Below, piece by piece: positions 1 through 10,039 of a DNA stretch of 10,039 bases. The position numbers were made by a program, and so were the translations under genes. This stretch comes from Candidatus Helarchaeota archaeon (GTDB lineage Archaea; Asgardarchaeota; Lokiarchaeia; Helarchaeales; JABXJV01), in contig JABXJV010000255.1 in the NCBI GenBank assembly GCA_013375355.1, forward strand, positions 1-10,039, in the 5' to 3' direction. Below the pieces are notes generated by a model. It was not told the DNA's origin. It did not search any database and worked only from the letters and a program-made list of their open reading frames with translations. Numbering within the stretch: the first letter of the stretch is position 1; the number at the start of each line of letters is the position of its first letter.

Positions 1-398
1 GTCTCAAAACTTTCTCTTTGTGTTCCAAAAGAATTTCTCTCAATATCAGCATCTAGAATTCCTAAAATAGGTTGATCTACTTTTCCAACAGTTTTATCAT
101 ATACCATCTTTGCTGAAAATACGAGTCCTGCACATACCAACAAAGTTGGCAAACCATTAACAATTTTATTCTTCAGAACCTCCAGTAAACCAACTCTCTT
201 GGCAAGAACACCAATAACTGTTGATTCGCCACCTGGAATAATTAAACCATCAATTCCGTTAAGATCATCTGGATATTTAATTCTTTTGATTATTCCATCG
301 TCAATTTTATATTTCTTAAAGATATTTTTTAAAATTTCTTCATGAAATCTTACATCACCTTGTAAAGCTAGAACTCCAATCGTTACCAATCCAATCAC
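1..398 (-). CDS. pdxT: PdxT, glutaminase subunit of pyridoxal 5'-phosphate synthase (3' end cut by window edge)
   Basis: This class I glutamine amidotransferase hydrolyses glutamine and passes ammonia to PdxS for DXP-independent PLP synthesis in the cytoplasm. Translating the minus strand gives the family's landmarks: GVLALQGD at the N terminus, PGGEST (residues 52-57 from the TTG), the nucleophile Cys86 in VCAGL, and RNSFGTQ just before the edge. About 129 codons are present. The C-terminal His/Glu of the catalytic triad would lie outside the window. Two starts are possible in the same frame: GTG at 398 or TTG at 389. GGTGAT (392-397, minus) is a good Shine-Dalgarno match four bases before the TTG, so the TTG is somewhat favoured. 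The gene follows pdxS by 12 or 21 bases, the usual pdxST operon order. Identity is sure; only the start is open. The residue before CAG is Val, where Thr is usual in PdxT. Confidence 0.95.
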   Translation of the reverse strand, partial: MIGLVTIGVLALQGDVRFHEEILKNIFKKYKIDDGIIKRIKYPDDLNGIDGLIIPGGESTVIGVLAKRVGLLEVLKNKIVNGLPTLLVCAGLVFSAKMVYDKTVGKVDQPILGILDADIERNSFGTQRESFE

Positions 399-410
399 CC
401 TTCAAAACGC

Positions 411-1355
411 TTAAATATCAGATCCTCTAACTTCCCAACGTTCACCTGTGGTAATTTCTAAATCTATTCCATCCATAGCTCTCTTTTCGAGAACCATTTT
501 TTGTGCTTCTTTTATAATTTCTGGATTATCCCAGAAACTAGTAGCTAATACTATTGCTTCTGCTCGAGTTTGAGGGTCTTCTGATTTAAAAATTCCTGAA
601 CCTACGAAAATTCCATCACAGCCTAGACCCATCATAAATCCTGCATCCGCAGGAGTTGCTATACCTCCTGCAGCAAAAATTGTAACAGGAATTCTCCCCA
701 AATCAGCTGTTAATTTAACTATGTCATAACTTGCCTTAAATTCTCGGGCATATTTTATTAACTCTTGAGGATTATTTTTTGATGCCGAAACAAGCCTTAA
801 TTGTTCCTTAATTTTATTAAAATGAATAATCGCATGTTTGACGTCACCAGTGCCTGGTTCACCTTTTGAACGGAGCATGCTAGCACCCTCTTCTATCCGT
901 CTTAAAGAACTTCCTAAATCTGTACAACCATTAACGAATGGCACTTTGAAATCATGTTTCCATATATGATGTTCAGAGTCCGCTACATTAAGGACCTCAC
1001 TTTCATCAATTGTATCAACACCAGCAGCTTCAAGTATTCTGGCTTCACCTACATGACCAATACGACATTTCATCATGATAGGAATTGAAATATGGGCTCT
1101 AATTTCATCATATAATTTTAATGATGCAGTTCTTGCTATACCTCCTGATTTCCTTATATCATAAGGAAGTTTGTCCAATAACATGACTGCAACTGCACCT
1201 GCTACTTCAGCAATTTGTGCTTGTTCAACGTTTGTAACATCCATAATGACTCCATTTTCCTGCATATGTGGAAATCCTTTTTTTACTGTCCAAGTACTCT
1301 GAATACGGTCTTTTAATATTAATTTTCCTGCATTATAGTCTGGCATTTCTTTCAA
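411..1355 (-). CDS. pdxS: PdxS, PLP synthase lyase subunit
   Basis: PdxS makes pyridoxal 5'-phosphate from ribose 5-phosphate, glyceraldehyde 3-phosphate and ammonia supplied by PdxT. It is a (beta/alpha)8 barrel that forms a dodecamer in the family. Visible motifs (numbered from 1355) are GVIMDV with Asp39, IPIMMKCRIGH with the first Schiff-base Lys96, IDESEVL, the phosphate-binding RSKGEPGTG with the second Lys164, AAGGIATPADA and GIFVGSGIFKS. Length (311-314 residues) is slightly above the usual 290-300 because of a short N-terminal extension. Position 1355 is a TTG; an ATG three codons in (1346) is an equally good or better start. Some normally constant positions differ: ALERVPADIR reads LLDKLPYDIR, and KARIGH reads KCRIGH. 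All catalytic residues remain, so it should be active. It is first in the operon with pdxT. Confidence 0.96.
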   Translation of the reverse strand: MKEMPDYNAGKLILKDRIQSTWTVKKGFPHMQENGVIMDVTNVEQAQIAEVAGAVAVMLLDKLPYDIRKSGGIARTASLKLYDEIRAHISIPIMMKCRIGHVGEARILEAAGVDTIDESEVLNVADSEHHIWKHDFKVPFVNGCTDLGSSLRRIEEGASMLRSKGEPGTGDVKHAIIHFNKIKEQLRLVSASKNNPQELIKYAREFKASYDIVKLTADLGRIPVTIFAAGGIATPADAGFMMGLGCDGIFVGSGIFKSEDPQTRAEAIVLATSFWDNPEIIKEAQKMVLEKRAMDGIDLEITTGERWEVRGSDI

Positions 1356-1403
1356 CTTCTTTTAAAATATTTCAAAATAGATTATACAATAAATAAAATC
1401 TTA

Positions 1404-1418
1404 CTTTTATTATAAACC
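1404..1418 (-). promoter_or_regulatory. Candidate archaeal TATA region for pdxST
   Basis: The minus-strand sequence GGTTTATAATAAAAG lies about 50-60 bases before the pdxS start and resembles an archaeal TATA box. The whole 124-base gap is AT-rich, so other TATA-like matches occur (for example around 1381-1387 and 1443-1453). The assignment is weak and rests only on composition and position. Confidence 0.25.
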
Positions 1419-1479
1419 TTTATACGTCAATTTTCATTTTAATTTAAATATTTAACACTTATAGAAAAATAACTGAATA

Positions 1480-1671
1480 TTATGAAACGCTAACACTATT
1501 CTGGTGAATAGTGAGTTTAACTATATATTTACAAAAATTACATTTAACTTTTTTATTTGTGGGTTTATTAAGGGTGACTTTATATTTTCTTCCACAGTTA
1601 GGACATCTATATTTCACAATCCATCCATTTACTTGTTTATCAAATTCAACACTATTTTCTTCCGAAGACAT
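1480..1671 (-). CDS. Small zinc-ribbon protein, 63 residues, function unknown
   Basis: The product carries two CxxC knuckles, Cys23-PN-Cys26 and Cys44-NF-Cys47, 17 residues apart, in a compact beta-rich pattern (GWIVKYRCPNCGRKY, then KVKCNFCKYIVKL). This fits a stand-alone Zn-ribbon of the rubredoxin-like/transcription-factor type. There is a short acidic N terminus and no membrane segment or second domain. The start is an ATG at 1671 with no clear Shine-Dalgarno, so the mRNA may be leaderless. It lies 100 bases downstream of a winged-helix gene on the same strand and 124 bases before pdxS. Small archaeal Zn-ribbons often bind nucleic acid or act as partners of larger machines, but nothing here fixes a role. 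That it is real is supported by the paired cysteines; the overlapping plus-strand frames have no protein-like features. Confidence 0.7.
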   Translation of the reverse strand: MSSEENSVEFDKQVNGWIVKYRCPNCGRKYKVTLNKPTNKKVKCNFCKYIVKLTIHQNSVSVS

Positions 1672-1771
1672 TTTTATTCAATCATTATTTAATATTAAAA
1701 TTTTTCAATCCCTAAGTTATAATGAAATAATATTCTATATATCTATAACTAATTGGCATTTAAAAAATATT

Positions 1772-2332
1772 TTAATTATTAGGAAAATGTTCATCAATTA
1801 AAGCTTGGGGTATTTCATTTTCACCTTCAAGATTAGATCGATATTCTTCAATGTCCTCATCCTTACCAAATTCGTCTAATAATTCCCTAATTACTCTAAC
1901 TAATTCTCCAATATGCTCTCTATATGGTTCATCTGTATACTGCTCATTATCCAAACCACCAAGAAAATCATACCACTCTTCTAATTCTTCGTATACATCC
2001 TTAAATTTATTGTTATCCTTTTTAATAACCTGCTTTTTCTTCTTTTTTAATTCTATTTGAAGGTTTGAAATCTTATTTTCTTGTTTTTTTATTTCATCAT
2101 TAATAATCTCCAATTCTGGATTGGTTTCAGCAATACGCCACCATACCCATACACCCCTTTTTTTCGGTCGTACCCCCCAAATTTTCTTTTCTTTTAATAA
2201 TTTCTCGAGGCGGGGGTATGTTAAGTGACGAGGTTTATTGATAATATCATTAACCTCTTTCGTAGTTAACGGAACATCGGAATTTGTAACGATTTCTAAA
2301 ATATTATCTTTAAGTTGTTCATTTTTTTTCAT
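1772..2332 (-). CDS. Winged-helix/coiled-coil protein, paralogue B
   Basis: Residues about 5-66 form a predicted winged helix: a helical start, PLTTKEVNDIIN as helix-turn-helix lead-in, a second helix (YPRLEKLLKEKKI), then a basic wing ending in VWVWWRI. Residues about 70-105 are a Lys/Glu-rich coiled coil. The C-terminal third (110-186) is acidic and helical, ending in a short IPQALIDEHF motif. It is a tandem paralogue of the gene just upstream (2352-2942): same domain order, similar wing (WW), and matching C-terminal motif (LPYGILKKYF in the other). The frame is open up to a TTG at 2374 that would overlap the upstream stop. The ATG at 2332 (186 residues, 19-base gap) is the more natural start. 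Likely a DNA-binding regulator or chromatin-type factor; the family is not recognised. Confidence 0.8.
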   Translation of the reverse strand: MKKNEQLKDNILEIVTNSDVPLTTKEVNDIINKPRHLTYPRLEKLLKEKKIWGVRPKKRGVWVWWRIAETNPELEIINDEIKKQENKISNLQIELKKKKKQVIKKDNNKFKDVYEELEEWYDFLGGLDNEQYTDEPYREHIGELVRVIRELLDEFGKDEDIEEYRSNLEGENEIPQALIDEHFPNN

Positions 2333-2351
2333 ATTTTCCACTTTGTAGCTA

Positions 2352-2942
2352 TTAGCTTGTTCTATCCCAACCAAAATATTTTTTTAGGATGCCATATGGT
2401 AACTCGTGTTGTTCCATTAAATGATAATAAATTTCATTCATATCCCTGAATCTTGGTTTCATATATGAGTTAATTATGTCATTTATTTTGATTGTTAAAA
2501 AATCAATTGTTCTTAAAAGATCGCTAACTGTCCAATCTTCTTCAATTTCTGCTATTTTATCTTCTTTTTCTTGTATATTGATTTCTAACTCTTTAATTTT
2601 TTCAGATAATTCATTTTGGTTGTTTTCTTCTTTTTTTAATTCAACAGATTGTACTTGTTTTTGAAGGTCTGAAGAATTCTCTTTTAATTTATTTAATCGT
2701 AATTTCTTTGATTCAATTTCATTTTTATTAATAGGTTTATCAGGAAGCCACCAAATGTAAGATCCACCTTTTTTTAGTTGTTTTCCCTTTATTTTACCCT
2801 CTATTGCCAATTTTTTTAAAAGTGTTAAAAGAGAATAGTTTGGTCTCTTGACTATCTGACTTAATTCTTCTGTTGATAGTGGATATTGTGAATTCAAGAT
2901 TATTTTATAAAGTTTTTTTGTGATTTTGTCCATTTGAATCAT
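2352..2942 (-). CDS. Winged-helix/coiled-coil protein, paralogue A
   Basis: This 196-residue protein has an N-terminal winged helix (about 4-68; YPLSTEELSQIV as the HTH lead, then a helix and a basic wing ending SYIWWLP). A long heptad-like Lys/Glu/Leu coiled coil follows (about 75-138). A helical C-terminal domain ends in LPYGILKKYFGW. The layout matches paralogue B downstream, so the pair arose by tandem duplication. The coiled coil suggests dimerisation, possibly as a heterodimer with B. Starts are ATG at 2942 or ATG at 2933; neither has a strong Shine-Dalgarno. It is the first gene after the 342-base intergenic region, so a promoter should lie there and probably drives both paralogues. 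DNA binding is inferred from the fold only; no ligand-binding domain or receiver is seen. Confidence 0.8.
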   Translation of the reverse strand: MIQMDKITKKLYKIILNSQYPLSTEELSQIVKRPNYSLLTLLKKLAIEGKIKGKQLKKGGSYIWWLPDKPINKNEIESKKLRLNKLKENSSDLQKQVQSVELKKEENNQNELSEKIKELEINIQEKEDKIAEIEEDWTVSDLLRTIDFLTIKINDIINSYMKPRFRDMNEIYYHLMEQHELPYGILKKYFGWDRTS

Positions 2943-3011
2943 TTAAATTAATATCAAAAAATTTGACAAGACTATTTTCTAGTTGAGTTAAATATTAATT
3001 AACTAAAAAGG

Positions 3012-3019
3012 TTTTTAAA
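3012..3019. promoter_or_regulatory. TATA-like box, readable on either strand
   Basis: The plus strand reads TTTTTAAA after purine-rich TAAAAAGG (BRE-like); the minus strand reads TTTAAAAA. On the plus strand it would place a start near 3040-3045, at the edge of the GC-rich hairpin island. On the minus strand it would serve paralogue A with a leader of about 45 bases. Orientation cannot be decided from sequence alone. Confidence 0.25.
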
Positions 3020-3039
3020 CTATAATTTGCCTAAAAATT

Positions 3040-3130
3040 TACGAGAACTTCCACCGATTCGAAGAATATTGAACTCTTCGACCCGGGTATATAATTGGAA
3101 CCTTGATCATCTTAAACCCTCGGGTTCCTT
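3040..3130. ncRNA. Candidate structured RNA (GC-richer hairpin island)
   Basis: By hand count this stretch is about 45% G+C, standing out from very AT-rich flanks. It contains a 7-bp hairpin (TCGAAGA at 3059-3065 with TCTTCGA at 3075-3081, 9-base loop) and a 6-bp stem (GGAACC at 3097-3102 with GGTTCC at 3123-3128). A 5-bp alternative pairing, ACCCG 3081-3085 with CGGGT 3121-3125, would be mutually exclusive with parts of these. A GC-rich island with stems in an AT-rich genome is a classic sign of ncRNA or a cis-acting leader. It does not fit a tRNA, no clear C/D boxes were found, and the strand is unknown. Confidence 0.3.
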
Positions 3131-3182
3131 ATATTTCAAATTATATGTAAGATTTTTTCCCTTTAGGTGTGAAAATATTTTG

Positions 3183-3201
3183 ACTTTTTAATATAAAAAG
3201 T
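3183..3201. repeat. Short perfect inverted repeat
   Basis: ACTTTTTA (3183-3190) and TAAAAAGT (3194-3201) pair perfectly around a 3-base loop. The stem is almost all A:T, so it would be weak. It may help end the transcript coming from 3285 or may simply reflect AT-rich chance. Confidence 0.3.
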
Positions 3202-3284
3202 TTTATTATTTGCAGTGTGATATAGAGGAAATTTTAAATGAGGATATTGGACTTTCAATTCAATTATAACGCCTTTTATTAATT

Positions 3285-3470
3285 CTAATAGGTTTTCTTG
3301 AGGTTTGCCTCATAGACTTTTCTTCTTGCGTTATCCAATTGTATTTTAACTAAATTATCAACAATCTCTTCCAATTTTTTGAATCTTAAATGGAAATTTA
3401 TTCCTACTAACACTCCTATTAGACTACCAAGGATTCCAAAAATTACAGACAATATTATAATAAATTCCAA
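3285..3470 (-). CDS. Small single-span membrane protein, 61 residues
   Basis: Residues about 3-26 are a continuous hydrophobic, glycine-spaced segment (FGILGSLIGVLVG) that should span the membrane. Residues 27-61 are a basic amphipathic tail (HLRFKKLEEIVDNLVKIQL...) that would lie in the cytoplasm by the positive-inside rule and could form a short coiled coil. The start is TTG at 3470, supported by a perfect AGGAGG eight bases upstream. An out-of-frame ATG at 3474 is closer to the Shine-Dalgarno but yields only a 16-codon peptide without protein character. It lies 77 bases downstream of the 52-residue zinc-ribbon gene and probably shares its transcript. The role is unknown; it could be a membrane anchor or partner. 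Confidence 0.7.
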   Translation of the reverse strand: MEFIIILSVIFGILGSLIGVLVGINFHLRFKKLEEIVDNLVKIQLDNARRKVYEANLKKTY

Positions 3471-3478
3471 TCATCTAA

Positions 3479-3484
3479 CCTCCT
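3479..3484 (-). promoter_or_regulatory. Strong Shine-Dalgarno (AGGAGG) for the membrane protein
   Basis: AGGAGG on the minus strand ends eight bases before the TTG at 3470. It is the clearest ribosome-binding site in the window and decides the TTG start over the nearby out-of-frame ATG. Confidence 0.75.
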
Positions 3485-3547
3485 ATTTTTTATCTGTCCA
3501 ATTAATATTTTGCATTATCATTATATTTGCAATAGATATAAAATGAC

Positions 3548-3706
3548 CTATTTCATTAATTCAATCATAACCCCGCAATGCTCACATTTACAAGGAGGCA
3601 TATAATCCAAAGGTGCTTTACAATTAGGGCAATTTAATGCTGTTAATTTGGTTCTGGGCGGAATCGTGATATATACGTTAAAAGTATGTAGCAACCTACT
3701 ACACAT
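3548..3706 (-). CDS. 52-residue zinc-ribbon protein overlapping the giant gene's stop
   Basis: A short frame begins at ATG 3706, inside ATGTGTAG, where TAG (3699-3701) ends the giant protein. The overlap of eight bases is typical of translational coupling. The 52-residue product has Cys26-PN-Cys29 and Cys41-EH-Cys44 (plus Cys39), a minimal Zn-ribbon: LTALNCPNCKAPLDYM, then CKCEHCGVMIEL. A conserved-looking PPRTKLTALNCPNC segment precedes the first knuckle. Its position suggests a partner of the giant Cas1-DHH-OB protein. An alternative is that it is a C-terminal Zn-ribbon once fused to the OB folds and now separated by a frame change, or joined by programmed frameshifting. The cysteine pattern and the coupled start argue that it is real despite its size. 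Confidence 0.65.
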   Translation of the reverse strand: MCSRLLHTFNVYITIPPRTKLTALNCPNCKAPLDYMPPCKCEHCGVMIELMK

Positions 3707-6700
3707 ATTTATCTAGATTAACTTTAATTGGTTCATGTTCAATGTTCTTATTTTCTCCAAATCTCCCGATATTTAATTGCAAATGATCTTGGAATTGATT
3801 AACATAGACATTCCTCAATTCATATATTTCCCCAATTTCAAATTGATCAATCGTATCATCAAATAAAGATAGATTAATTACAGCAGTATGATCCCCTACC
3901 AGGGCTGTCGCCGTCTTATGAAGTGATCCATCTTTAAATTTAACGATTCGTTGTGGATCTATTCTCTCTACTTTTATTATTAAATTTAATCTACTCATTT
4001 CTTTCTTTAAATTTTCTATTTTAATTTTAGGCATTGTAATTATCGGAATTTTTATATCCAAAGGCTCCCAGTGACTATACAGACCGATATTTAATTTACT
4101 TTGTCCTCTGTATGTATTAACATAGGAATTTCTTATTAGAATAGCTGTTCCACCGTGTTCTTCCAATAATTTTATGTGTTCGTTCCAAGCTGTTAGTATA
4201 TAAGTTCCTGTTTCGTCTCCAACTAAAAAATCTGCTATTTGTTGGTCAATTTGATCTTTTTGCACAACCCGTTCATTCAATTTTTCAATAACTTGGACTA
4301 TAATGTTTACCCTTTCAGAATCAGGTTGTAAATCAGTAATTTTCGATAACACTGAGCGATCTATTTCATAGGTTTCTAAATCTATACTATTTTCGACTTC
4401 GATCTCCTCTCTGGGATTATTAGAAATAATCAGACTTTCTAAGTTATGAGGTAATTTTTCCTTTTCAATGTTAGAAATAAGATTTGAATGTAACCAAAAG
4501 ATTCCGAGATTTCGAAGCCTCTTCAGCTCGTTAATGTTTTCAATATTATTTTCATGTAAATAGAGCTGGTGTAAATTAAATAGGTCATCAAAACCTTCAA
4601 TTTGTTCAATTCGATTTTTCTGAAGGCATAATTCATGTAAATTAATTTGTTTATCTAACCCTTCTATTTTATTTATGTTATTGTCTGCTAGGTTCAACCT
4701 TTTCAATTCAATTAGATTTCCCAATCCCTTTATCTTGCTAATTTTGTTTTGCGAAAGGTCTAGCACTTCCAACCTTAACAGACGATCCAACCCCTCAATC
4801 TTCTTAATGTTATTTGAAGAAAGGTTCAACCTCCATAACCTACTAAGCCTATCTAGTCCATTAATCTGTTTAATACGATTATTCCATAGCTCTAGGCTCT
4901 GCAATTGTGAAAGGTGTTCCAAATATTCTATTTCAGATATCTGATTACAAGCCAAGTCTAATGCTTGCAAATGAGTTAAATACCTAATTTTTTCAGGTAT
5001 TCTTGTGAGATTTCTATTTCTTATTTTAAGGCTGACCACATGGCTATCTCTAATTAGATAATCATACTCCCCTATTTCAAATTCTCTTTTTAAATATTCT
5101 AAAACTTCCAATTCATTTTCATAATCTACTACTTTTTCTTCTTCTGGTTCCGAAGGTGTTATTTCTTCAATCCCCTTATCTACGATTAGTTCTGGTTTAA
5201 ATTCAGGCAATTTCATCTCGATTTTACTGCGTTTAAATTTCGTGATCTTTTTTAATTTTAAATCAGCCAAGTTTCCCTTTTTCAATGCTATTTCACATTT
5301 AGCAATATCTTCATGTGAAGCCTCATCAATCCGATCAAGATTACTAAAAATAAATATATTCCAATTGTATTCATCTTTATTTTCTTTATTTTTATCCTGA
5401 TCATTTTCAAATACAATCTGGACATCCAATTGACAACCTGCTGAAGAATATTTTGAAAACCGTTTATTTTTATCAATTTCCTGTCCAAAACCGTAATACG
5501 GCAAAATAACACAAGCTCCAAGATCAACAGCCATCCTGTGCAGTTTTCCAATCATCTCTCCAGCAATCATGGATCTTGAAGAGAGCGATTCATCAGCTTC
5601 TTTTTTCGAATCTGCGTATTTTACGGGATATTTCCCTATTACCGGGGGAAATATAGAATTAACAACAACAAATTTGGCTTTTGTGAGCCTAACAACCTTT
5701 TCGAGTTCACTAACAGCTGAACGGAGCACATCAACATCTTCAATATGGCTGAAAATGATATTTTGAATTTTCTCAAGGTCAAATTCTCGGTGGGTTGTAG
5801 ACATTGTAAACAAATTTCTGTAATATCGTTCTCCTAAAGTATCGATACAAATTATTTTTGGTGAGTTTAGCCCATGTTTATGTTGTGCCGCTAGCATCAA
5901 ATAATTTACAAAAGAGAAAAGCTCACGTCTTTGATTGTAGTAAGTATATAGAAGATTTACGGAACCTTTTTGAAAAAATCCCCTTGTTTTTCCAGTGCGA
6001 TCTAATAATTTATCTAAATTATCAATAAAGACTGGAAAATTTTCTGCTCTAAAACGAATGTATTTAGCCCCTGGATCAGCTGGTGGGATGGGAGTATCTC
6101 GCTTTCCCATTCCAATTTTTATTTTTTTAAACCCGAATTGATAACAAAAAGGTGTGATTTTATCGGATTCTGTCAAATCAGTATTCTCAAGCATTTCTAC
6201 AACTTTATTTGGAGGTAAGTATGTGTAAAAATCCCAAGTATCTGTTCTAAATTTCGTTTCTACAGTTTCCCAATTACCAATTTTCTTAGGGACCTTATAT
6301 TCGGCATTTTTAGTAAACCTATATACAGTTTTTTGGGGAGCCGTTACATTTAATGCCCTTTTATGTCCAATTACGGGAAATAATGATTGAAAATTAAAGT
6401 TAGTAGTGTAATTTCGAATTGAGAATGTAAAGTCATACCAAAAAAGAATGGCAAAATCTACCCTGTAATGTAAGCTTTTTAAGAGATCACGAATTCCAAG
6501 ATGGTTAAAATATTCTTCAAATATTAATACAGCAAATTTTTTACCGCATTTCGTCTTTTTCAAACTGTGGTGATAGAGAAATTTCTCTGGCATTTTCATT
6601 TTTTTCTTTTCTTTTTCCAAATAAGCTTTAATGTTTTTAAATTGTGTGTTTGGCATCTGCTTGTTACAGATTTTTTTAAAAAATAGATCCCAGCGGAAGC

Positions 6701-9700
6701 TATCTCCTTTTTCCTTCCAAAAACTGAATTTTTTCACCCAATTATTAATTAATTTTGATTGTCTATTGGCAAGCTGTTCGTCAAAATATTGTAACTCCTT
6801 ATTAAATTGTGTGCGGCAATGAAACAATCTTGTATTTTCAAATTCAGTAGGTTTAAAGACAGTTATAAACCCGTTGACAAGATCTAATAGTAAATCCGAA
6901 TTAAACGACTTCCGAACCAGCTCATAAGCGTGTCCAATGGTTGAATAATAATATTCCATCCCGATGACCTGCAATTCTTCTTTAGCATTCTCTAAAACCC
7001 TTCTATGATGGTCAAACCAGCATAGTCTTAATGTAGCAGTGGTCCCAACTCTATGCTTTAAAATTCGGCAAATCTGTAATTTCTTATTGTCCATACCAAA
7101 ATCTGCAATATAAACTATATTGCGCCCAAATTCAAGAAATTGTCTTGGGACATCCCTCTGTAATACGTCATCTATGAAATTTCTCGCACTTGGACTGTTA
7201 TCAGCAATAAAAATCTTCATGTTATTTTTAAGATAGTGCTTAAGCGAAAGCAATAAAGCTGATTTAAAACCATCTACGTCATTATGGGTAACAATTATAA
7301 TTTTTGTAGGTAATAAAGGTGGTTGAACTGCAGGCATATACCTTCTTTTATGTATTTTAGGTCTAACAGCCTTCACTTTCTTTTTAAGAGGAATTTTTAT
7401 CAATCTCCCATCACCCAAAACTACATCTATAATTTTGAATTTCTGCAAAATTTCATCCGCTTCTTCTTGAGTCTCAAAGGCTCTAAAAGGAGTATACCTT
7501 AGAATTTTACGTTGGAAAAAGAAAGCGATAAAAAACGAAAATCCAAGGAGATTTAAAGCCAAACTTCTAGCATCTTTCTTCATTATTTCCGATAATGTCA
7601 ATATTTGACCGTCATTATAATATTTATAGTTACAAATTCGTTCAAATATCGCATTCAATTTAACCATACCTCTTCCGTCCTCTGGAAGGTAATAAATAGT
7701 CCTCCGCCATTCATAGAGACCATGTTCGAAATCTGATTTTAGCAATTCCCCTTTTCTTAACGCTGCCCCTAATTCATGGCGAACCACAGGTCTGTAAAGG
7801 TCCATGAAGTCAAAAATAATTTCCCGATTTTTCTTTCTCTCTATTGGTAATTCATCTTCAGTTTCCTTTCTTTTAATTTCTATTTTATCTCGGCTATGGA
7901 TGATTCCTGGACCGGGATAATATTTTGAGAACCCTGCATACCCCAGAGCTTCTGAAGCCATCTGCTGTAATAAATAGTATAGATAGTTTAGTGCGGTATC
8001 ATAAGGATCGAAAGCTCTAGCCCCTTTAAAAAGATCAGTACGGACATATCGTTGTTTTTTTCTGCCAATAATTTTAAAATTTTTGGGTAACCCCTTTTTT
8101 TCCGCTTTCCACGCTTCATTTGCTGCAAGTCCTTCCGCAGATCTTAATTTATTTATAGCATTTGGTAGTGTAAATCCATAGGTCGGTCTGTATTTTAATC
8201 CCAAAAAGAAGTGAACTATAAATAAAGGAATGAATTCAAAGGGGTTTTCAAATAAATATGAGGAGGAGGCACGTTCAAGTTGTTGCAAAATTCTTTTCTG
8301 CACATAATCTTTTTTTAAAACGAATTTCCCAAACTTAGAAGTTAGTGCGACAGTAGACATTATTTTAGAAAAAATCAATTGCCGCCCTAATTCTACAATT
8401 TCTCCAGTTTGTTTCCCCTTTCTAATTGCACTCCTTAATAATTCGGCAAATGCTGCTTGTTTTTCGGTAAGCATTATTTTTGCTTCGGAATATTCTACAA
8501 TTCCGATTTTATATTGTTCAAGAAATGCTTTATCTTCCTCCTTGATTTTTCCTCCTGCTAAAATAATCAAAGTAACTTCATCTATAAAGTAACATCGCTT
8601 ATTCACAAAAATTAAGGGTAATGTTGCATTTTTTCTTATCCTGAATTTATAACCGGTTGCCAGAAAAATTATCCTCGGTTCTGAAAATGTTGGAACATAA
8701 AGGATTTTATCATTACCTTTCTTTATTCGATCATCAGGGATTATTACCCCCCACTTCACAATAAATTTACTACCTCTTATTCTCCTGATTAACAAGTTGC
8801 AATTTTTACAGATAATTATCTCATTAGACTCCGGAATCCTAATAGTTTTTGCTATTCCACACCCAGGGCAAAACGGTCCTCTGGTCCCCTCTTTGAACTT
8901 ATGGATAATTTTGAACCGATTTATTTTAGGTTCTAACTCATCACATGCATCCTTTTCTGCATACGCGGGATCTCGGGTTTTATCACAAATATATACCGTT
9001 TCTTGCTCATACTTGCGTAATGTGGGGTCCAATTTATAAAATTTACAATCCTTGCACTTAAATTTCTCCTCTTTTTTAGGCATCATACCTTTAATGTAAT
9101 ATCTTTTTGCGGGTGCTCCCCTAGTTCCGTATACCAATTCAAATTCAACATCATTTTTTAACTTCTTTGCAAGAGTATTTCTTACAGTTCCCTCCAGTAC
9201 GGGTCTGGGACGCTTAAACCGTTCTGGTAAATTTATTCCGTGAGAATTGGATAAGAAGCGGTGGAATTTAAGCATTATTTCTTCATATGCTTTAATTTTC
9301 TTTATGATTTCTTTCACAGCCGCCCCTTTTTTTCCAAATTCTCGTAAAATATGTAATATAATATCCGCTAGATGATATTTTTTACTTATAGTCGGATGAG
9401 GGCGGTTTCGGGGACGTCTTCGTTTTTTTTCAGGGTTTTTTTGAAATTTTTTTACTAGTCTTGCTAAACGCTGAATACCATTTTGGTGTGCTTTATTAAC
9501 ATTTGCCATGCCAATAGAGGGAGTTAAAAAACCGTAGAAGGGAGTTAAAGTGTCTATCAGTGCCAAAGCGAAAGAGATCGTTTCGTCGAAATCCCCATGA
9601 TAATAGGTTGAACTTTTAGTAGCTTTCATATGTAAAAATCGACCACGATAAATGGATAAAAAAGAACTCGAAATCCAAGCACCAGTTTTACAATAAGTTT

Positions 9701-10039
9701 CATAATCCCCCTTATAAATCCCTAATCTTCTAAAATTCTCGGCATTTACATCGATATGCTCAGTATATCTTGAAAAAAAGAACTGAATTTTTTCTCGTCG
9801 CTTTTTTTTCCATTTTCTAAGCTTTGCCTTAGATGCATAAATATGCAATTTTTCGTTATCTTGAGTCTGGAGTTTACTAGAAACTTCACCAACTATACGT
9901 TGAAACTCTTTGCCCGATGGTTTATGCTTTTTTTCGAGAAATTTGATGAATTTTTTTGCAAATTTTATATCTAATTGATTTTCTACGCACGCTTCTCCTA
10001 TAAACGTTAAGCCAAATTTTCCCTTATTCTCACGGATAA
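3699..10039 (-). CDS. Giant Cas1-DHH-RecA-like-LRR-OB fusion protein (N terminus beyond right edge)
   Basis: One frame without stops runs from the right edge to TAG at 3699-3701. Residue numbers here count from the TTG at 9848, but the frame stays open through 63 further codons to the edge with normal protein composition. The real protein is therefore at least 2112 residues and its start is outside the window. Order: basic N-terminal region of unknown fold (1-155); winged-helix-like (158-255); Cys4 clusters (Cys265/268/288/302 and Cys327/330/347/350); Cas1-like integrase (about 380-780; Glu572, His651, Asp680, Asp683); DHH-DHHA1 phosphoesterase (about 848-1170); RadA/RadB-like RecA fold without a P-loop (about 1272-1500); acidic linker (1545-1580); SDS22-type LRRs (about 1604-1812); two OB folds (about 1846-1930 and 1951-2032). 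The parts imply cutting, trimming, binding and integrating DNA in one polypeptide. No signal peptide or membrane span is seen in the visible part. No cas2 or CRISPR repeats accompany it. I know no named family with this layout; the biological role (mobile element, defence or repair) is inference. Confidence 0.9.
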   Translation of the reverse strand, partial: IRENKGKFGLTFIGEACVENQLDIKFAKKFIKFLEKKHKPSGKEFQRIVGEVSSKLQTQDNEKLHIYASKAKLRKWKKKRREKIQFFFSRYTEHIDVNAENFRRLGIYKGDYETYCKTGAWISSSFLSIYRGRFLHMKATKSSTYYHGDFDETISFALALIDTLTPFYGFLTPSIGMANVNKAHQNGIQRLARLVKKFQKNPEKKRRRPRNRPHPTISKKYHLADIILHILREFGKKGAAVKEIIKKIKAYEEIMLKFHRFLSNSHGINLPERFKRPRPVLEGTVRNTLAKKLKNDVEFELVYGTRGAPAKRYYIKGMMPKKEEKFKCKDCKFYKLDPTLRKYEQETVYICDKTRDPAYAEKDACDELEPKINRFKIIHKFKEGTRGPFCPGCGIAKTIRIPESNEIIICKNCNLLIRRIRGSKFIVKWGVIIPDDRIKKGNDKILYVPTFSEPRIIFLATGYKFRIRKNATLPLIFVNKRCYFIDEVTLIILAGGKIKEEDKAFLEQYKIGIVEYSEAKIMLTEKQAAFAELLRSAIRKGKQTGEIVELGRQLIFSKIMSTVALTSKFGKFVLKKDYVQKRILQQLERASSSYLFENPFEFIPLFIVHFFLGLKYRPTYGFTLPNAINKLRSAEGLAANEAWKAEKKGLPKNFKIIGRKKQRYVRTDLFKGARAFDPYDTALNYLYYLLQQMASEALGYAGFSKYYPGPGIIHSRDKIEIKRKETEDELPIERKKNREIIFDFMDLYRPVVRHELGAALRKGELLKSDFEHGLYEWRRTIYYLPEDGRGMVKLNAIFERICNYKYYNDGQILTLSEIMKKDARSLALNLLGFSFFIAFFFQRKILRYTPFRAFETQEEADEILQKFKIIDVVLGDGRLIKIPLKKKVKAVRPKIHKRRYMPAVQPPLLPTKIIIVTHNDVDGFKSALLLSLKHYLKNNMKIFIADNSPSARNFIDDVLQRDVPRQFLEFGRNIVYIADFGMDNKKLQICRILKHRVGTTATLRLCWFDHHRRVLENAKEELQVIGMEYYYSTIGHAYELVRKSFNSDLLLDLVNGFITVFKPTEFENTRLFHCRTQFNKELQYFDEQLANRQSKLINNWVKKFSFWKEKGDSFRWDLFFKKICNKQMPNTQFKNIKAYLEKEKKKMKMPEKFLYHHSLKKTKCGKKFAVLIFEEYFNHLGIRDLLKSLHYRVDFAILFWYDFTFSIRNYTTNFNFQSLFPVIGHKRALNVTAPQKTVYRFTKNAEYKVPKKIGNWETVETKFRTDTWDFYTYLPPNKVVEMLENTDLTESDKITPFCYQFGFKKIKIGMGKRDTPIPPADPGAKYIRFRAENFPVFIDNLDKLLDRTGKTRGFFQKGSVNLLYTYYNQRRELFSFVNYLMLAAQHKHGLNSPKIICIDTLGERYYRNLFTMSTTHREFDLEKIQNIIFSHIEDVDVLRSAVSELEKVVRLTKAKFVVVNSIFPPVIGKYPVKYADSKKEADESLSSRSMIAGEMIGKLHRMAVDLGACVILPYYGFGQEIDKNKRFSKYSSAGCQLDVQIVFENDQDKNKENKDEYNWNIFIFSNLDRIDEASHEDIAKCEIALKKGNLADLKLKKITKFKRSKIEMKLPEFKPELIVDKGIEEITPSEPEEEKVVDYENELEVLEYLKREFEIGEYDYLIRDSHVVSLKIRNRNLTRIPEKIRYLTHLQALDLACNQISEIEYLEHLSQLQSLELWNNRIKQINGLDRLSRLWRLNLSSNNIKKIEGLDRLLRLEVLDLSQNKISKIKGLGNLIELKRLNLADNNINKIEGLDKQINLHELCLQKNRIEQIEGFDDLFNLHQLYLHENNIENINELKRLRNLGIFWLHSNLISNIEKEKLPHNLESLIISNNPREEIEVENSIDLETYEIDRSVLSKITDLQPDSERVNIIVQVIEKLNERVVQKDQIDQQIADFLVGDETGTYILTAWNEHIKLLEEHGGTAILIRNSYVNTYRGQSKLNIGLYSHWEPLDIKIPIITMPKIKIENLKKEMSRLNLIIKVERIDPQRIVKFKDGSLHKTATALVGDHTAVINLSLFDDTIDQFEIGEIYELRNVYVNQFQDHLQLNIGRFGENKNIEHEPIKVNLDKYV
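3753..4313 (-). other. Domain of giant protein: tandem OB folds of SOSS-B/RPA type
   Basis: OB1 (about 1846-1930) has VNIIVQVIEKL, ADFLVGDETGTYILTAW, IRNSYVNTYRGQSKLNIG. OB2 (about 1951-2032) has LNLIIKVERID, ATALVGDHTAVINLSLF, LRNVYVNQFQDHLQLNIGRFG. The 'LVGDeTG...l..W' and 'l.N.yvn.f.g.lqLniGr.g' signatures are those of SOSS-B (hSSB1) and archaeal RPA OB folds, which bind ssDNA. OB2 has lost the second Gly of the VGDETG turn. The two are related to each other and probably arose by duplication. Confidence 0.85.
4413..5039 (-). repeat. About ten 22-residue SDS22-like leucine-rich repeats in the giant protein
   Basis: Repeats begin near residues 1604, 1627, 1649, 1671, 1693, 1715, 1737, 1759, 1781 and 1803, with the consensus LxxLxLxxNxIxxIxGLxxLxx. 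The strict 22-residue (66-base) spacing and the I.GLD phase place it with SDS22-type LRRs, common in eukaryotes and also seen in some archaea and bacteria. It forms a curved protein-binding surface. The end repeats are more divergent, as caps often are. Confidence 0.9.
5349..6035 (-). other. Domain of giant protein: RadA/RadB-like RecA fold lacking a P-loop
   Basis: The order of elements follows RadA/RadB: IDNLDKLLDR, KGSVNLLY at the strand before the P-loop, a helix (LFSFVNYLMLAAQ), PKIICIDTLGERYYR at the IDTE strand, AKFVVVNSIFPPVIG at the Walker B strand, SRSMIAGEMIGKLHRMAVDLGACVILP as the following helix and strand, and a C-terminal SSAGCQLDVQIVF. The Walker A GxxxxGKT is replaced by YTYYNQRREL, and the Walker B Asp by Asn1397. 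It probably does not hydrolyse ATP and acts as a scaffold or filament-binding module. Confidence 0.6.
6339..7307 (-). other. Domain of giant protein: DHH-DHHA1 phosphoesterase, RecJ-like
   Basis: Motif I is THNDVDG (His855, Asp857, Asp859), motif II is YIADFG (Asp916), motif III is WFDHHR (Asp946-His947-His948), and a motif IV candidate is LLLDLVNGF (Asp989). A DHHA1-type C-terminal part follows, with FSIRNYTTNFNF and a reduced GHKRAL in place of the usual GGGHxxAAG. The manganese-binding residues are all present, so a phosphodiesterase or exonuclease is expected. In RecJ and archaeal relatives these enzymes degrade ssDNA or short oligonucleotides. Next to Cas1 it could trim substrate ends before integration; that link is inference. 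Confidence 0.85.
7509..8708 (-). other. Domain of giant protein: Cas1-like integrase/endonuclease
   Basis: Residues about 380-470 match the Cas1 N-terminal beta domain, including a strand-rich run and the KIGIVEYSEAKIML turn that corresponds to the usual 'gi.v.f.s..g' element. The helical domain follows: RQLIFSKIMS, then AEGLAANEAW (Glu572), FDPYDTALNYLYYLL, GPGIIHSRD (His651) and EIIFDFMDLYRPVV (Asp680, Asp683). These correspond to the four metal ligands of Cas1 (E141/H208/D218/D221 in the E. coli protein), with the same D-x-x-D spacing. About 18 extra charged residues lie between the His and the first Asp. The set is intact, so metal-dependent integrase activity is expected. No Cas2-like domain is recognised in the same chain. 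Confidence 0.85.
8784..9377 (-). other. Domain of giant protein: winged-helix-like segment plus two zinc clusters
   Basis: Residues 158-255 hold helices (YHLADIILHILREFG, KEIIKKIKAYEE, VRNTLAKKLKND) followed by a strand-turn-strand ending AKRYYIKG, the pattern of a winged helix. Cys265, 268, 288 and 302 form one possible zinc site. Cys327-PG-Cys330 and Cys347-KN-Cys350 form a clear Zn-ribbon directly before the Cas1 beta domain. These segments probably recognise DNA, such as a target or terminal sequence, for the integrase that follows. DNA binding is inferred from fold pattern only. Confidence 0.6.

What the first reader, a model, noticed from the sequence alone, without database searches (positions are those of the whole stretch)
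3699..10039. Single chain of more than 2100 residues joining Cas1, DHH nuclease, RecA-like fold, LRRs and ssDNA-binding OB folds
The frame is continuous and each block carries recognisable family motifs. Established knowledge: Cas1 integrates DNA, DHH/RecJ enzymes degrade ssDNA, RadA-type folds bind recombination filaments, and SOSS-B-like OB folds hold ssDNA. Inference: this is an all-in-one DNA capture and integration machine, perhaps a Cas1-solo or casposon-like relative, or a CRISPR-independent defence/recording system. I know of no described system with this layout.
Basis: partly seen in the sequence, partly recalled or inferred. Interest (0 to 1): 0.95.

Follow-up and report, generated by a model that had tools for sequence, protein, structure and literature searches.

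The report
Giant helicase–Cas1–nuclease fusion protein, Asgard archaea
In a DNA stretch from a close relative of a known Helarchaeota (Asgard) genome, one unbroken gene joins a Cas1 DNA-integrase domain with its active-site residues intact, a probable DHH nuclease domain, leucine-rich repeats and single-strand-DNA-binding folds; relatives whose start is held begin with a helicase and no CRISPR array was found near them, so it is likely an all-in-one DNA-inserting machine of a kind I could not find described.

Summary
The frame is real: 3699-10037 (-), 2,112 codons, open at the window edge. Cas1, LRR and OB folds are confirmed; DHH rests on motifs and a sub-threshold Pfam hit; the RadA-like block is weak, with a degenerate Walker A. 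A 47% homologue shows a Hel308/Ski2-type helicase upstream, outside the window. It is no assembly join: Helarchaeota LW55_61 (96% at neighbouring pdxS) has five helicase–Cas1 paralogues, four with the same helicase–Cas1–DHH–RadA order. Two other Asgard genomes hold shorter relatives (eight matches, six of them full frames of about 1,330 aa) beside a RAMP gene, a second gene and a structured RNA. Eight cysteines and the Cas1 E/H/D triad are identical in 15 of 15 proteins; this Cas1 parts from 30 other Asgard Cas1 at 100/100. No CRISPR array was found at 14 loci (the scan rings at 9 of 30 control loci); no other Cas1 and no Cas2 were found in LW55_61. Some cassettes recur as units with sharp edges. 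Best reading: a CRISPR-independent, probably mobile, helicase-driven Cas1 integrase. Function is untested; no target-site duplications were found.

The parts
3699..10037 (-). Giant ORF, 2,112 codons in the window (5' end outside): [helicase upstream]–paired cysteines–Cas1–DHH–RadA-like–LRR–OB–OB
   Evidence: homologues with the same order up to the RadA-like block
9858..10037 (-). Residues 1-60: tail of the helicase module, aligned to P0001 from residue 425 on, behind its Helicase_C domain (220-324)
8799..9056 (-). Residues 328-413: eight cysteines in pairs (C328, C331, C351, C365, C390, C393, C410, C413), read as two zinc-binding modules; identical in 15 of 15 relatives
   Evidence: zinc binding is inferred from the motif
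7428..8675 (-). Cas1 domain (about residues 455-870)
   Evidence: 11-member profile A9 vs PDB Cas1 4n06 E 2.7e-13 and casposase 6opm 1.3e-10; Foldseek of a low-confidence model
8133..8135 (-). Catalytic E635 of Cas1
   Evidence: aligned E in 15 of 15 proteins; role by homology to Cas1
7896..7898 (-). Catalytic H714 of Cas1
   Evidence: aligned H in 15 of 15; role by homology to Cas1
7809..7811 (-). Catalytic D743 of Cas1
   Evidence: aligned D in 15 of 15; role by homology to Cas1
6906..7304 (-). Probable DHH phosphoesterase domain (residues 912-1044); HxDxDG, AD and DHH motifs kept in 5 of 5 aligned copies
   Evidence: Pfam DHH 8.4e-6 on the fragment, under the cut-off; alignment
5403..6020 (-). 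RadA/Rad51-like block with degenerate Walker A (about residues 1340-1545)
   Evidence: (RadA E 0.0037); weak
4458..5060 (-). Leucine-rich repeats (about residues 1660-1860)
4053..4349 (-). OB fold 1, Ssb/RPA-like (residues 1897-1995)
3732..4031 (-). OB fold 2 (about residues 2003-2102)
   Evidence: two stretches; PRK07218 spans 1857-2102; limits approximate
2352..2942 (-). Small winged-helix/coiled-coil protein (196 aa), downstream neighbour
   Evidence: homologous to proteins beside giant genes L022 and L024, BLASTP 2.8e-17 and 2.3e-18; winged helix by inspection, only a weak PADLOC WH_III-A hit (0.014) on the L024 relative
1772..2374 (-). Second small winged-helix/coiled-coil protein (200 aa)
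   Evidence: homologous to the same two neighbours, 2.7e-16 and 1.2e-15
1744..1745 (.). Synteny break: window 1-1744 is 90% identical to LW55_61 (L001 9612-11355); nothing to the right of it aligned to L001

Best explanation
This gene encodes most of a giant single chain – helicase (seen in homologues, predicted just beyond the window edge), paired-cysteine modules, Cas1, probable DHH nuclease, degenerate RadA-like block, LRR and two OB folds – that likely works as a helicase-driven Cas1 integrase acting without a CRISPR array. Predicted order of steps (all inferred from domains): the Hel308/Ski2-type motor opens or translocates on DNA; the C-terminal OB folds hold the exposed single strand; the DHH domain trims it; the intact Cas1 centre joins the processed 3' ends into target DNA; the cysteine modules and the small winged-helix proteins encoded next to it position the complex on particular DNA ends. 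The biological use I think most likely is movement of its own cassette, as in casposons, because some related cassettes recur as whole units with sharp edges in different surroundings. Shown: the architecture, the conserved triad and cysteines, the multi-copy family, no array found nearby. Not shown: any activity, the substrate, or excision/insertion.
For: Continuous frame. Cas1 by sequence and profile, by fold with a low-confidence model; E/H/D in 15 of 15. Helicase: P0001, 47% over residues 1-783, has DEAD, Helicase_C and Cas1 in one frame; DEAD and Helicase_C in five of five LW55_61 chains; profile A5 resembles ASCC3/Brr2/Hel308/Pol theta helicases; motif I and DExH found in 10 of 10 sequences, QxxGR in 9 of 10, the S-A-T-like motif III in 6 of 10. 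Family: five paralogues in LW55_61, 13 matches in 3 of 227 Asgard genomes. Own clade 100/100. CRISPR-independence: no array found in 14 helicase–Cas1 loci while the scan rings in 9 of 30 control Cas1 loci; no other Cas1 and no Cas2 found in LW55_61. Unit-wise recurrence: TnpB+giant gene, 8.1 kb, 81% identical at two places; the left edge at one of them cuts a CoA-binding (CoA-ligase-like) ORF short; helicase–Cas1/RAMP/gene2/RNA cassettes at three places of G177 share main pieces of 77-87% identity and end within about 75 nt of each other; synteny break behind the window's winged-helix genes.
Against: No target-site duplication found at the three cassettes looked at; terminal inverted repeats not established anywhere; the left end of the window's copy lies outside. 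Relatives are 21-47% identical to the window protein, not a recent burst. A fourth and fifth cassette (L043, L044) match each other only in pieces, and their flanks are alike too (leucine-rich-repeat genes), so for them movement is not shown. The one PolB found lies near 1 of 5 LW55_61 copies. The RadA-like block is weak. DHH, LRR and OB parts are not constant: the ~1,330-aa relatives stop after Cas1; the 1,439-aa copy has LRR and no DHH hit; no OB and no DHH hit at E 0.1 in the full LW55_61 chains, and single members fall below Pfam Cas1 at E 0.1 (L023, L039) though the profile holds them. Two scans of viral contigs found no relative.
Confidence: 0.5

Rival explanations
1. An array-less defence or memory system: the chain captures invader DNA and stores or destroys it, together with RAMP proteins and a structured RNA in some relatives.
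For: At 8 of 8 G177/G178 loci the helicase–Cas1 gene is followed by a RAMP (L040: Csm3-like 1.3e-10, Pfam RAMPs 4.3e-6), a second ~270-aa gene (weak HD hit 0.013 in L041, no Pfam hit in L040) and RNA copies with 14 compensating pairs; a distant RAMP lies 4 kb from one LW55_61 copy. Varied accessory domains (LRR, OB, DHH) resemble defence proteins.
Against: No arrays found, no Cas2 found, no known effector seen beside the window copy; no RNA hit in the window or LW55_61 loci; the RNA also occurs in G175, G176 and G179, which gave no helicase–Cas1 or RAMP match.
Confidence: 0.27
2. A cellular DNA-repair or recombination factor: a Pol-theta-like or Hel308-like motor joined to nucleases, with Cas1 used as a structure-specific nuclease.
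For: Hel308/Pol theta-like helicase; DHH, RadA-like and RPA/SSB-like parts; a role of archaeal Cas1 in repair is the subject of PMC9051519 (title and start of abstract seen in listings).
Against: Found in 3 of 227 Asgard genomes, multi-copy and in different places, which does not suit a housekeeping repair gene.
Confidence: 0.15
3. Assembly join or decayed pseudogene.
For: No whole genome is held for the window; a decayed gene tail lies just downstream (3549-3673).
Against: Frame intact over 2,112 codons; partial homologues on other contigs (P0001, P0002); four other giant frames without internal stops in LW55_61; catalytic residues and cysteines identical in 15 of 15.
Confidence: 0.03

Closest known systems
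Casposase / Cas1-solo of casposons
   Same: Cas1 without CRISPR; Cas1 joined to zinc-binding and HTH domains in some casposon families (PMC4046053, passages); casposase 6opm among the best structure and profile matches; multi-copy, unit-like
   Different: Here Cas1 is fused to a Ski2/Hel308-type helicase and, in the long form, DHH, RadA-like, LRR and OB parts; PolB seen beside 1 of 5 copies; TIR/TSD not shown
CRISPR adaptation Cas1, including fusions such as Cas6-RT-Cas1
   Same: Same fold and catalytic triad (A. fulgidus Cas1 4n06 E 2.7e-13; Cas6-RT-Cas1 1.3e-4); fusion of Cas1 to other enzymes
   Different: No array found near, no Cas2 found in the nearest genome, parted at 100/100 from 30 Asgard Cas1
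Hel308 / Ski2-type helicases and polymerase theta
   Same: The motor of the relatives matches this group in the PDB; polymerase theta is also a helicase fused to a DNA-joining enzyme (general knowledge)
   Different: Polymerase replaced by Cas1
Class 1 CRISPR effector RAMPs (Csm3/Cas7)
   Same: RAMP gene beside the ~1,330-aa relatives
   Different: No array found; a structured RNA of unknown use lies beside it; none seen in the window

Membership tests
Cas1 protein family | Significant Cas1 profile match | tested here: met
   PF01867 22.6 bits vs cut-off 22.3; PADLOC Cas1 9.5e-9; A9 vs 4n06 2.7e-13. TIGR00287 is below its curated cut-off
Cas1 protein family | E/H/D catalytic triad | tested here: met
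   15 of 15
CRISPR-Cas adaptation module | CRISPR array nearby | tested here: not met
   0 of 14 helicase–Cas1 loci; same scan 9 of 30 control loci. Exact 16-mers in three or more spaced copies; the upstream side of the window is not visible
CRISPR-Cas adaptation module | Cas2 in the genome | tested here: not met
   PF09827: none found in LW55_61 (G001) or G178; one in G177 beside its separate Cas1. The window's own genome is not held
Casposon | Family B DNA polymerase in the element | tested here: inconclusive
   A Pfam-confirmed PolB (7.8e-56) lies next to one of five LW55_61 copies; with it as query, no other PolB in the window or the other loci compared. A divergent PolB could be missed; upstream of the window and behind L023 nothing is held
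[quoted passage not shown]
   Ends within about 75 nt but no TSD at three G177 cassettes; one end of the window copy and of L023 is not held
DHH/RecJ phosphoesterases | D.D and DHH motifs, profile match | tested here: inconclusive
   Motifs kept in 5 of 5; Pfam score 24.9-26.5, under the 28.1 cut-off; 2 of 5 members match at E 0.5
RecA/RadA recombinases | Walker A ATPase motif | tested here: not met
   The loop reads GFFQKGSVNLL in the window and has no GKT/GKS in any of the five aligned
SF2 helicase (Hel308/Ski2-like) | Motifs I, II, VI | tested here: met
   In homologues only: 10 of 10, 10 of 10, 9 of 10. For the window protein the region is outside
Any integrase | DNA integration activity | not testable with these tools
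   needs the bench

The most novel reading that the evidence does not exclude
Helicase–Cas1 chains are the integrases of a new class of Asgard mobile elements that stand between casposons and CRISPR: the integrase brings its own motor and end-processing nucleases in one chain, and in the compact version the element also carries a RAMP, a second RAMP/HD-like protein and a structured RNA that ends at the element's border, so that the neighbouring host DNA could serve as its guide – an array-less, RNA-guided integration system.
Probability: 0.22. Interest if true: 0.97.

Novelty: categorically new. Interest (0 to 1): 0.87.

Why it matters
Cas1 is the hallmark integrase of CRISPR memory, and casposons are the current model of its origin. 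A separate Cas1 clade with the catalytic triad kept, joined to its own helicase and probable nuclease in one chain, present in several copies per genome, with no array or Cas2 found in the nearest genome, and in its compact form beside RAMP proteins and a structured RNA, gives a third context for Cas1. It makes the question 'how did an integrase and an RNA-binding complex first come together' testable. If active, it is also a single-protein DNA-inserting tool. At present it is architecture and comparison only.

Tried and rejected
Assembly join or pseudogene: rejected on paralogues and conserved residues. CRISPR adaptation gene: rejected on arrays and Cas2. Ordinary casposon: not accepted, PolB near one of five copies, TIR/TSD not shown. 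Active RadA recombinase: rejected on Walker A. Virus origin: two scans of viral contigs found no relative; the first used poor peptide patterns. The first genome scan with alignment A1 found none, its two patterns lying in the first 20 residues; I spent the last scan on pdxS to name the organism. DHH–RadA model: pLDDT 35, not used. Cas1 model: pLDDT 50, pTM 0.39, TM-scores to the query of 0.14-0.31 in the first 44 rows, used only for its consistent Foldseek list. An alignment for a Cas1+DHH model (A6) was made and not used. A first Cas1 tree held 18 other Cas1, two of them evidently wrong ORFs with very long branches (L116, L118); replaced with all 30 loci. Three of the 15 helicase–Cas1 proteins (P0001, L040, L045) were left out of the tree; no casposase was in it. 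A 46-228-nt repeat near the RAMP genes of L025 was followed: four places in LW55_61, no clear role. Rfam: no hit in the window; one tRNA in seven loci. The RNA structure was first counted with 17 pairs, then with the 5' hairpin added by hand; the second structure was written after seeing the alignment. The protein database search sees only relatives sharing short exact words and of 0.55-1.75 times the query's length, so distant or split relatives may be missed.

Literature: eight searches, four of them with only the first 12-15 of 22 to 3,693 papers listed; no listed title or abstract beginning names a helicase–Cas1 fusion or an Asgard Cas1–DHH chain; the phrase search for helicase-Cas1 and the search Asgard + defense systems + CRISPR + Helarchaeota gave 0 papers. 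I read found passages only of PMC12669027, PMC10910872 and PMC4046053, 12 places each; others were seen as listings. Most subscription papers and bioRxiv are not in the library.

Full report
Observation. The frame is there as described: 3699-10037 on the - strand, 2,112 codons, open at the right edge of the window, so its start is not in view. Family searches confirm Cas1 (PF01867 just over its cut-off; PADLOC Cas1 9.5e-9), LRR and two Ssb-like OB stretches, and find DHH slightly under Pfam's cut-off. Behind the giant gene, on the same strand, lie a 61-aa ORF, two small winged-helix/coiled-coil proteins, a 63-aa ORF with sub-threshold zinc-ribbon hits, pdxS and pdxT.

What lies upstream. A search of 5.8 billion proteins with residues 1-1640 returned one relative, P0001, 47% identical over residues 1-783, with DEAD and Helicase_C domains in its residues 2-324. 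Residue 1 of the window chain aligns with P0001 residue 425, behind that motor. A search with residues 880-1640 returned P0002, almost identical to residues 1071-2112, on another contig. So the true chain is predicted to be about 2,500 residues: helicase–paired cysteines–Cas1–DHH–RadA-like–LRR–OB–OB. The helicase itself is inferred for this copy.

Organism and relatives. pdxS of the window is 96% identical to that of Helarchaeota LW55_61 (L001), and window 1-1744 aligns to it at 90%. That genome (G001) has no giant gene in the 10 kb fetched on either side of pdxS but holds five paralogues elsewhere: open frames of 2,601, 2,160, 2,096, 2,772 and 1,474 codons, none with internal stops; the 2,096 one runs to a contig end. 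DEAD and Helicase_C are found in five of five, Pfam Cas1 in four of five by hmmscan (the fifth, L023, is found by the six-frame search at 4.2e-5), LRR in the 1,439-aa one, OB and DHH in none at E 0.1 on the full chains; the DHH motifs are nevertheless aligned in the four longest, and a second match in the RadA-like region is seen in the same four. A two-row Cas1 profile over 227 Asgard genomes found matches in 3 (13 matches): LW55_61 (5), G177 (6) and G178 (2). Of the eight in G177 and G178, six lie in full helicase–Cas1 frames of 1,323-1,363 aa that end after Cas1; in L040 helicase and Cas1 are in two frames, and L045 is cut by a contig end. Over the same 227 genomes PF01867 matches 71; among the places listed only those three genomes have Cas1 in frames over 1,000 codons, the next longest being 623.

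Is it Cas1? An 11-member profile of the region finds A. fulgidus Cas1 in the PDB at 2.7e-13 along nearly its whole length, casposase 6opm at 1.3e-10 and Cas6-RT-Cas1 at 1.3e-4. A six-row AlphaFold model is poor (pLDDT 50, low TM-scores), yet the first 44 of the 50 Foldseek rows printed are Cas1, casposase, Cas1-containing complexes or an entry titled 'CRISPR-associated protein'; eight of all matches have E up to 0.001. E635, H714 and D743 of the window and eight cysteines before them are identical in 15 of 15 relatives aligned. In a tree of 12 helicase–Cas1 and 30 other Asgard Cas1 (the 30 loci given, from the best-scoring places) the two sets part at 100/100 support. Casposases were not in the tree.

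Other domains. The motor of the relatives resembles ASCC3, Brr2, Hel308 and polymerase theta; motif I and DExH are found in 10 of 10 sequences examined, QxxGR in 9 of 10, motif III in 6 of 10 by a simple pattern. DHH motifs are kept in five of five; Pfam DHH is reached by two of five fragments at E 0.5, under its cut-off in the window. The RadA-like part matches RadA at only 0.0037 and has lost the Walker A motif, so it is more likely structural.

Not CRISPR. A scan for spaced exact repeats found nothing in the window or in 13 other helicase–Cas1 loci and was shown to work: it rings at 9 of 30 control Cas1 loci, which have shorter flanks. In LW55_61 no Cas2 and no Cas1 other than the five fusions was found; in G178 no Cas2 and only a fusion; G177 has one separate Cas1 with a Cas2 beside it. 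These are metagenome genomes and may be incomplete.

Signs of mobility. In LW55_61 an 8.1-kb stretch holding a TnpB gene (Cas12f1-like_TNB 3.5e-18) and the giant gene occurs twice at 81% identity. Its left edge is sharp, and at one place it cuts short an ORF with a CoA-binding domain (Pfam 4.9e-13, profile 1-69 of 116); the right edge of one copy is lost at a contig end, and I did not find the other part of the cut gene in L022 or the next 19 kb. In G177, three cassettes (about L041 5036-12119, L042 5347-11849, L039 5905-12384) share main pieces of 77-87% identity and end within about 75 nt of each other, with nothing alike in most of the flanks compared; no target-site duplication is visible. 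Two other cassettes (L043, L044) match each other in pieces, and there the flanks, full of leucine-rich repeats, are alike too. In the window, similarity to LW55_61 stops 27 bases behind the last winged-helix gene. These facts fit a mobile or once-mobile unit; they do not prove that Cas1 moves it.

The compact cassettes. At eight of eight G177/G178 loci the fusion is followed by a RAMP gene, a second ~270-aa gene and two to four copies of an RNA element. The second gene has only a weak HD hit (0.013 in L041; none in L040). The RNA's 27-pair structure, 20 rows, has 14 pairs with changes on both sides; none of 500 shuffles reaches this, and slid versions pair at 44-55% against 94%. In the three cassettes compared the last copy forms one border, and what follows it differs at each locus printed. 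Against a dedicated role: the RNA is found in 5 of 227 genomes, three of which (G175, G176, G179; 1.7-2.0 Mb) gave no helicase–Cas1 or RAMP match, and no copy was found in the window or LW55_61 loci. The RAMP family itself is in 14 of 227 Asgard genomes, up to 11 matches each; 12 of the 14 gave no helicase–Cas1 match. A 619-aa Cas1 protein with HTH and paired cysteines but no helicase occurs in two of these genomes; its Cas1 part aligns to the giant's (hhalign E 1.4e-5 over 153 columns), the rest does not. It may be a simpler relative; that is a guess.

Conclusion. The architecture and the family are solid; the function is inferred. I commit to a CRISPR-independent, helicase-driven Cas1 integrase, most likely serving its own cassette (0.5), with array-less defence or memory (0.27) and DNA repair (0.15) as rivals. 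I call it categorically new because the chain fails the CRISPR tests made here, is not shown to be a casposon, and no listed paper of eight searches describes such a fusion; its Cas1 core itself belongs to a known family.

Noticed in passing
L039-L046 (G177, G178), e.g. L041 5036-5184, 6437-6605, 6708-6838: Conserved structured RNA, about 130 nt, two to four copies per helicase–Cas1/RAMP cassette, strong covariation, no Rfam hit in the three of these loci searched (L041, L043, L046); matches in five Asgard genomes.
   Followed up: partly
L067-L077 and other loci: RAMP genes of this family in 14 of 227 Asgard genomes, often with a second gene behind, no array found in the loci fetched, beside varied partners (LAGLIDADG-HTH proteins, unknown 993- and 1,438-aa proteins).
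   Followed up: partly
L120 2770-4629, L121 5002-6861: 619-aa Cas1 protein with HTH and paired cysteines (97% alike in two genomes), no helicase.
   Followed up: partly
window 3549-3673: Decayed tail of a zinc-ribbon protein family ('PPCKCEHCGVMIELMK') just behind the giant gene; relatives in L022 and L086.
   Followed up: partly
L022 4764-6167, L023 4028-5431, L021 4873-6348: TnpB genes directly upstream of three of five giant genes; a palindrome like IS605 ends at the left edge of the L022 unit (seen by eye).
   Followed up: partly
L025 15687-15732, 18030-18257; L078 10339-10566: Repeated non-coding element around RAMP-like genes near the 1,439-aa fusion; four places in LW55_61.
   Followed up: partly
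L021 2169-4760: PolB gene (863 aa, Pfam DNA_pol_B 7.8e-56) next to one giant gene, the only one found at the five loci.
   Followed up: partly
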